Shown here: piece after piece, positions 23,989 to 25,148 of the stretch
How the letters are laid out: each line of letters opens with the position of its first letter
Numbering within the stretch: position 1 is the first letter of the stretch
Source: Bacteroidota bacterium
GTDB taxonomy: Bacteria; Bacteroidota; Bacteroidia; M30B66
Assembly (NCBI GenBank): GCA_027490225.1
Contig: JAIXYK010000002.1
Location: forward strand, 1-33,275
Length of the DNA: 33,275 nt
Reading direction: 5' to 3'
Translations under genes and position numbers: made by a program
The notes under the pieces: generated by a model
What the model saw: the letters and a program-made list of their open reading frames with translations, nothing else
Databases searched by the model: none
What the model was told of the DNA's origin: nothing

Positions 23989-24110
23989 AGTTTTTCAAAG
24001 TGTTTAAAGGACACAAGCTAAACAATTATGCATTACAAACCTTAGCCACCACAGATAAACTGTTTGTAAATTGATTTAAGTTGTGTACAAATTGCATTTT
24101 AAAAATATTT

Positions 24111-24191
24111 TGGGCGCCTAACAGGCTGTCGGCTGTATCTTTTTTTCGTGCCTCAAAAAAGGATGCCGCCTCCATCCTGGCGCGGGCATTT
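24111..24191. repeat. GC-rich intergenic element B with hairpin
   Basis: This is a GC-rich island in an AT-rich gap between the GH13 gene and the toxin pseudogene. It contains a 12-bp stem with two G-U pairs (arms 24135-24146 and 24155-24166, loop of 8) and the tail ATCCTGGCGCGGGCATT shared in part with element A. On the minus strand it lies downstream of the toxin gene (which ends at 24264), so its hairpin could also help end that transcript. Confidence 0.45.
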
Positions 24192-24263
24192 GTAAATGAA
24201 TCAGTTATTTAGGAAATTGAATATTTTATTAATGCTTTTACGACTGTTTCCTTATTGATAAAT

Positions 24264-24594
24264 TTACTTTTCAGAATGAGGTTTGCGATACTTTCGTTGA
24301 GGTGTTCTTTTTTGATGATAAATGGCTAAAATTATTATTAGTTCTTTATCTGAATCTATGATATAGATAATCGTAAATGGGAATTTTTTTTAGTCCTAGT
24401 TCAAAATAATTTTCAAATTCATTTTTCCAACGAAGTGGGTGAAGCTTTATTAAATTTATAGTATTTTCAACTTCTTTTATGAATTTCAAAGCTGTGTTAT
24501 GGCTATTTTTTAAATACCATCTTACAGATTCTTCGTATTCATTTTGAGCTATTGGGTGTAAAGAAATATCAAAATCTCTTCTATTTATTTTCAT
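24264..24594 (-). pseudogene. RelE/ParE-type toxin gene, frameshifted at an A8 run
   Basis: This is the toxin half of a type II toxin-antitoxin pair of the RelE/ParE superfamily. As read, the frame stops at 24346 after 82 codons, right after ELGLKKIPIYDYLYHRFR. If one base of the A8 run (T8 at 24384-24391 on the plus strand) is skipped, the frame continues LKKFPFTIIYIIDSDK..., then IIILAIYHQKRTPQRKYRK, and stops at 24264. That is the expected family C-terminus (basic, His/Arg-rich last strand), and the restored length is 109 aa, normal for the family. The start overlaps the antitoxin stop by 14 bases. The gene may be a true inactivation, a sequencing error in a homopolymer, or a case rescued by slippage on the A run. 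Without the restored C-terminus the toxin should be inactive. Confidence 0.82.
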
Positions 24595-24823
24595 TTAGAA
24601 TCTGCCTAATTCTTTTTTTGCTATCCTCTTGATTTACTAGTCGAAAATTGTTATCTAAATAATCTTTTTGTCTTTTACTTAATTCAGATTTTAATTTTGA
24701 GGTGTAAACTAATGCATTGTTTTCAATATCTTTCTCCATAATAGTAAACATTGCTTTTATTACTTTGTCATCAGCACTTTCTAAATAATTATGGAGCTTT
24801 TGGCGAATTTCTGCAGTTGACAT
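24581..24823 (-). CDS. Antitoxin of a RelE/ParE-type toxin-antitoxin pair
   Basis: This 80-aa protein is encoded just before the toxin, overlapping its start by 14 bases, in the usual antitoxin-first order. It is rich in charged residues and helical throughout (ADDKVIKAMFTIMEKDIEN, then KRQKDYLDNNFRLV), resembling small Bacteroidota addiction-module antitoxins. The C-terminal half likely wraps the toxin. I see no clear DNA-binding motif, though the N-terminal helices could dimerise. The frame is intact while the partner toxin is disrupted, a common end state of decaying toxin-antitoxin loci. Confidence 0.75.
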   Translation of the reverse strand: MSTAEIRQKLHNYLESADDKVIKAMFTIMEKDIENNALVYTSKLKSELSKRQKDYLDNNFRLVNQEDSKKRIRQILNENK

Positions 24824-25000
24824 TTGAATTTATCTTTCTAACAAAGTTAAGAGAATTATATGTTATTACAATTTAATTTTGAGCAGAAAGTTATTTTGAC
24901 TATCAAAGATTTATTTTGATGTTACTATAAATTGAACCCCTCGGGTTTTTAATTATTTCCCAAATGCTCAAATAAACTTCAACACCTATTTCCCCAGTAG

Positions 25001-25130
25001 CCGTTCAGCCTAAAACCACCTAGATGCTTGCGTGAGCGGTTGAAGCGGAAAGCCTCCGTAGGAGCTTGCAGCGAAAAACGCGACCCTTAGCCCCTTTTTC
25101 TTTTTAGGGCTAAGGGGCACGCCCAAATTT
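25001..25130. repeat. GC-rich intergenic element C
   Basis: This GC-rich block contains TGCTTGCGTGAGCGGTTGAA (25025-25044). A related block is found inverted in element D (32740-32767, TTTCAATCGCTCAGGCTTGC). It is downstream of the M15 gene on the minus strand. Confidence 0.45.
25084..25116 (-). terminator. 10-bp hairpin downstream of the M15 gene
   Basis: The arms CCCTTAGCCC (25084-25093) and GGGCTAAGGG (25107-25116) are perfectly complementary with a 13-base loop. On the minus strand it lies 33 bases past the M15 stop and is followed within six bases by a T5 run, so it may terminate the operon from 29585. The match to a classical terminator is partial. Confidence 0.45.
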
Positions 25131-25148
25131 TTATTCGAAAATATTAGG

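What the first reader, a model, noticed from the sequence alone, without database searches (positions are those of the whole stretch)
24264..24594. RelE/ParE toxin broken by one extra A in an A8 run, with intact antitoxin
The as-read toxin ends after 82 codons, but removing one base from the A8 tract restores an uninterrupted 109-aa frame whose C-terminus (ILAIYHQKRTP, basic end) is what the family requires. The frame stays open for 27 further codons past the false stop and matches the fold, so chance is unlikely. Possibilities are a recent inactivation, a homopolymer sequencing error, or a slippage-controlled toxin that is mostly off.
Basis: partly seen in the sequence, partly recalled or inferred. 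Interest (0 to 1): 0.6.

Follow-up and report, generated by a model that had tools for sequence, protein, structure and literature searches.

The report
Frameshifted RelE/ParE toxin gene, antitoxin intact
An ordinary bacterial toxin-antitoxin gene pair whose toxin gene is knocked out of frame by one extra A in a run of eight, most likely a recent inactivation (or, less likely, a sequencing slip), leaving a stub beside an intact antitoxin.

Summary
On the minus strand an 80-aa antitoxin gene (24823-24581) overlaps a toxin gene (start 24594) that reads 82 codons to a stop at 24346. At an A8 tract (24391-24384) the homologous frame changes; read across the tract, the gene runs 109 codons to 24264. 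Pfam ParE_toxin (PF05016) scores 21.2 bits as read (below its cut-off of 23) and 41.2 bits over 88 of 89 positions trans-frame. All 14 conserved family positions after the tract are present in the shifted frame, against 1 of 14 as read. The closest relative with the same two-gene order (uncultured Bacteroidetes, 41-45% identity) is intact. Of 56 relatives none has A8 and most have no tract, so there is no conserved slippage site. The assembly is not generally frame-broken at long A/T runs: 48 tracts of 8 or 9 lie inside intact long genes in a 421-kb sample. Best reading: a recent indel inactivation of a mobile RelE/ParE-type toxin. A single-base assembly error and low-level slippage rescue are not excluded; raw reads and strain-level relatives were not available. 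Ordinary, low interest.

The parts
24581..24823 (-). antitoxin gene, 80 aa, intact (first gene of the pair; Unstab_antitox-like)
   Evidence: 41% identity over residues 1-76 to the antitoxin at L003 5001-5249, which itself scores 23.2 bits to PF09720 Unstab_antitox (cut-off 23.3); 42% over 43 residues to the antitoxin at L008 1253-1495
24346..24594 (-). toxin gene as read, 82 aa, truncated ParE/RelE domain
   Evidence: PF05016 21.2 bits, profile 1-66 of 89, below cut-off
24581..24594 (-). 14-base overlap of antitoxin end and toxin start (operon layout as in intact relatives)
   Evidence: compare overlaps in L003 (5246/5249) and L008 (1495/1495)
24384..24391 (-). A8 tract where the homologous reading frame changes, at the K-K codons before the FP[YF] motif
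   Evidence: aligned site in 56 relatives
24264..24383 (-). remaining 39 codons of the toxin in the shifted frame, stop TAA at 24266-24264
   Evidence: C-terminal piece alone matches PF05016 positions 64-88

Best explanation
A type II toxin-antitoxin operon (antitoxin first, toxin second) of the RelE/ParE superfamily, carried in the chromosome of an uncultured Bacteroidota-type bacterium, whose toxin gene was inactivated recently by gain of one A in a homopolymer, most simply by replication slippage from seven to eight A at a Lys-Lys codon pair. As read, the product keeps the N-terminal helices and the start of the sheet but loses the FP[YF] strand, the last strand and the H..[KR]R.P..K basic C-terminus; it should be inactive or degraded, while the antitoxin is still encoded. 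Shown: frame change, homology on both sides of it, intact relatives. Inferred: that the DNA is real, direction and recency of the event, loss of toxicity.
For: Frame and homology. Relatives with seven A in frame at the same codons, including the closest module L003. No further decay: 16 of 21 conserved positions before and 14 of 14 after the tract kept, no other stop or indel. Long A/T tracts elsewhere in the same assembly are in frame. A published classification of frameshifted genes puts singletons without a conserved shift site, confirmed by BLASTp and Pfam, with indel pseudogenes or sequencing errors (PMC3711429).
Against: No reads and no second strain: an isolated base error at A8 would look the same. 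Absence of any other damage is also what an error, or a gene still in use, would show. PMC3711429 itself expects many such singletons to be sequencing errors.
Confidence: 0.6

Rival explanations
1. Isolated sequencing or assembly error in the homopolymer; the toxin gene is really intact.
For: Single event, at a homopolymer, in a multi-contig draft genome (66 contigs), toxin otherwise undamaged.
Against: The assembly shows no general homopolymer problem: 36 A8/A9 and 12 T8/T9 tracts lie inside intact ORFs of 150 codons or more in the sample, and the share of frame-broken-like cases does not rise with tract length (0.032 at 4, 0.035 at 5, 0.047 at 6, 0.027 at 7, 0.045 at 8, 0 at 9); the A8 case and two of the three A/T7 cases inspected are ordinary gene ends.
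Confidence: 0.27
2. Leaky or switching toxin: RNA polymerase slippage, or reversible slipped-strand mutation at A8, gives a minority of full-length toxin.
For: Eight or nine A can be slippery in bacteria; 8A is thought productive in IS elements of Deinococcus and Nostoc (PMC1088944). In this genome coding A8 and A9 runs are rarer than codon shuffles predict (30 against 60, 6 against 23), as expected if such runs cost something.
Against: Tract not conserved: none of 56 relatives has A8, most have no tract, and the 48%-identity relative has none. No strong RNA structure downstream (z -1.7). The most common ribosomal shift at A-runs, -1, leads to a stop after 11 codons, not to the toxin. The under-representation does not show slippage at this site.
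Confidence: 0.1
3. The 82-aa form is itself a working product (for example an antitoxin-binding decoy or repressor).
For: It keeps the N-terminal part that in RelE/ParE complexes may take part in antitoxin binding (general knowledge, not tested).
Against: No relative has this truncated form; the 12 residues after the tract match 1 of 14 conserved positions.
Confidence: 0.03

Closest known systems
RelE/ParE superfamily toxin, Pfam PF05016 (ParE_toxin)
   Same: Full-length domain match in the trans-frame reading, FP[YF] and H..[KR]R.P motifs, second gene of an overlapping two-gene operon
   Different: Out of frame at an A8 run; as read it falls below the family cut-off
TA module of uncultured Bacteroidetes AM_bin-0098 (CAILLK010000102.1; L003 5001-5548)
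   Same: Same order and overlap; antitoxin 41%, toxin 45% identity; ELGLKK[FY]P at the site, also with a seven-A run
   Different: Toxin is one intact 100-aa frame; different chromosomal neighbours
Putative addiction module component, PF09720 / TIGR02574
   Same: The window's antitoxin is homologous to L003's, which sits at the PF09720 cut-off; weak direct TIGR02574 match (13.1 bits)
   Different: Window antitoxin itself does not reach either cut-off

Membership tests
RelE/ParE superfamily toxin (PF05016) | Profile match above gathering score across the domain | tested here: met
   Trans-frame 41.2 bits, 1-88 of 89; as read 21.2 bits, cut-off 23, not met
RelE/ParE superfamily toxin (PF05016) | Conserved C-terminal strand and basic motif | tested here: met
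   14 of 14 conserved positions after the tract in the shifted frame; 1 of 14 as read
RelE/ParE superfamily toxin (PF05016) | RelE-like fold | tested here: inconclusive
   Single-sequence AlphaFold2 model is poor, pLDDT 54.8
RelE/ParE superfamily toxin (PF05016) | Target: ribosome-bound mRNA (RelE) or gyrase (ParE) | not testable with these tools
   Sequence does not decide between the two; no close solved relative
Type II toxin-antitoxin operon | Antitoxin gene directly upstream, overlapping or adjacent | tested here: met
   14-base overlap; same arrangement in L003 and L008
Type II toxin-antitoxin operon | Toxin inhibits growth and antitoxin neutralises it | not testable with these tools
   Needs expression
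Programmed slippage gene | Conserved shift site in homologues | tested here: not met
   0 of 56 relatives with A8; longest-run counts 0-7, 51 of 56 at six or fewer
Antitoxin family PF09720/TIGR02574 | Profile match above cut-off | tested here: not met
   No PF09720 hit; TIGR02574 13.1 bits against 31.9; relation only through L003

The most novel reading that the evidence does not exclude
A chromosomal RelE/ParE toxin kept mostly off by an A8 tract and made in traces by transcriptional slippage, or switched on in some cells by tract-length change.
Probability: 0.08. Interest if true: 0.45.

Novelty: new member of a known kind. Interest (0 to 1): 0.15.

Why it matters
It is one more example of a TA toxin lost by a single-base homopolymer indel while its antitoxin stays; useful for correct annotation (a pseudogene or flagged frameshift, not an 82-aa protein). 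Only if slippage rescue were shown would it bear on how TA toxins are dosed.

Tried and rejected
Strain-level relatives: none; the own genus holds no other genome, and none of nine genomes of the family has a toxin homologue. No relatives in viral contigs or by DNA in plasmids; one distant protein match in a Calothrix plasmid; antitoxin not found in plasmids. No solved structure by sequence. Structure model without an alignment too poor to use, so no fold search was run. Considered and rejected: programmed -1 ribosomal frameshifting (wrong frame), and chance match of the shifted frame. Paper searches on inactivated RelE/ParE toxins gave nothing specific.

Full report
Observation. On the minus strand the window holds an 80-aa ORF (24823-24581) and, overlapping it by 14 bases, an 82-aa ORF (24594-24346). 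The second contains eight A at 24391-24384. The as-read protein scores 21.2 bits against Pfam ParE_toxin, profile 1-66, below the cut-off of 23; the trans-frame protein scores 41.2 bits, profile 1-88 of 89, and its last 39 residues alone match profile 64-88. The shift is therefore not a chance open frame.

Relatives. A tblastn-type search finds homologues in 62 of 198 related genomes at E 0.001 or better (own genome included), but in none of the nine others of the same family, which points to a patchy, probably horizontally moved module. The nearest toxin is 48% identical over residues 8-103 (G120, L008), uninterrupted, with an 80-aa antitoxin just before it. The antitoxin search found one relative, in an uncultured Bacteroidetes bin (L003); its antitoxin (82 aa, 41% identity) is followed by an intact 100-aa toxin, 45% identical, reading ELGLKKYPYNIVYSIEEEDKHIIVKSIFHHKRNP where the window's trans-frame reading gives ELGLKKFPFTIIYIIDSDKELIIILAIYHQKRTP. 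That toxin scores 45.5 bits to PF05016 and its antitoxin 23.2 bits to PF09720 Unstab_antitox, just under the cut-off.

Conservation. Over 52 usable relatives, 35 positions keep one residue class in at least 65% of sequences. The window's protein keeps 16 of 21 before the tract and 14 of 14 after it in the shifted frame, among them FPF, IxY and HxxRxP; the as-read frame keeps 1 of 14. There is no second lesion. The gene is thus either recently broken, wrongly read, or still used.

Is the tract a conserved switch? At the aligned codons, the longest A run in 56 relatives ranges from 0 to 7; none has eight; the five with seven (L003 among them) are in frame. The run arises from two Lys codons before the FP motif in some members and is missing in most, so it is not a conserved slippery site. 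The downstream RNA has only weak structure (z -1.7). A -1 ribosomal shift would stop after 11 codons.

Is it an error? Reads are not available. In 421 kb of this assembly (20 stretches plus the window, G+C 35%), 36 A8-A9 and 12 T8-T9 tracts lie within intact ORFs of at least 150 codons, and the proportion of places where a frame seems to break and resume in another frame does not rise with run length; the one A8 case and two of the three A/T7 cases are plain gene ends by inspection. So the assembly has no general homopolymer defect. This does not rule out one wrong base. Coding A8 and A9 runs are under-represented against codon shuffles (30 against 60; 6 against 23). This resembles the pattern reported for many bacteria, where selection against long A/T runs becomes evident at about nine (PMC1088944); ORFs broken at such runs drop out of my gene set, so part of the deficit may be method.

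Context. The pair lies between a VanY-type carboxypeptidase gene (25820-25149) and a cyclomaltodextrinase-like amylase gene (23988-22114). In three genomes of the same family (G001, G006, G007) the same two neighbours flank a MiaE tRNA hydroxylase gene instead, which the window's genome lacks. So the TA pair occupies a slot that differs within the family.

Mechanism. Most likely: a RelE/ParE-type toxin and its antitoxin arrived by horizontal transfer; a replication slip added one A; the toxin now ends as an 82-residue stub without the last strands and basic C-terminus, and without a toxin the antitoxin is expected to drift. Shown: frame, homology, intact relatives, no conserved site, clean assembly at other tracts. 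Inferred: authenticity of the eighth A, direction of change, inactivity. RelE-like (mRNA cleavage) and ParE-like (gyrase) targets cannot be told apart here.

Verdict. Real observation, ordinary explanation. By the published scheme for frameshifted prokaryotic genes, a singleton without a conserved site that is confirmed by BLASTp and Pfam is a pseudogene or a sequencing error (PMC3711429); I favour the former at about 0.6 to 0.27.

Noticed in passing
window 23989-25148; L090 868-1455; L092 2009-2596; L088 702-1295: The TA pair sits between the VanY and amylase genes where three genomes of the same family carry a MiaE gene (PF06175, 152.6 bits); the window's genome has no match to that protein, so miaE was lost here or never present.
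   Followed up: partly
L006 (own genome C45:47671-47907): A second, distant RelE/ParE-type toxin (31% identity to the trans-frame protein) in the same genome is uninterrupted.
   Followed up: no
sampled contigs L037-L056 and window: Coding A and T runs of eight or more are about half as frequent or less than codon shuffles predict, and none of ten or more was seen in 345 kb of coding sequence.
   Followed up: partly
window 24137-24164 and own genome C32:52483-52510 (L002): A 28-base stretch next to a terminator-like hairpin (24178-24160) recurs at 96% identity elsewhere in the genome.
   Followed up: no
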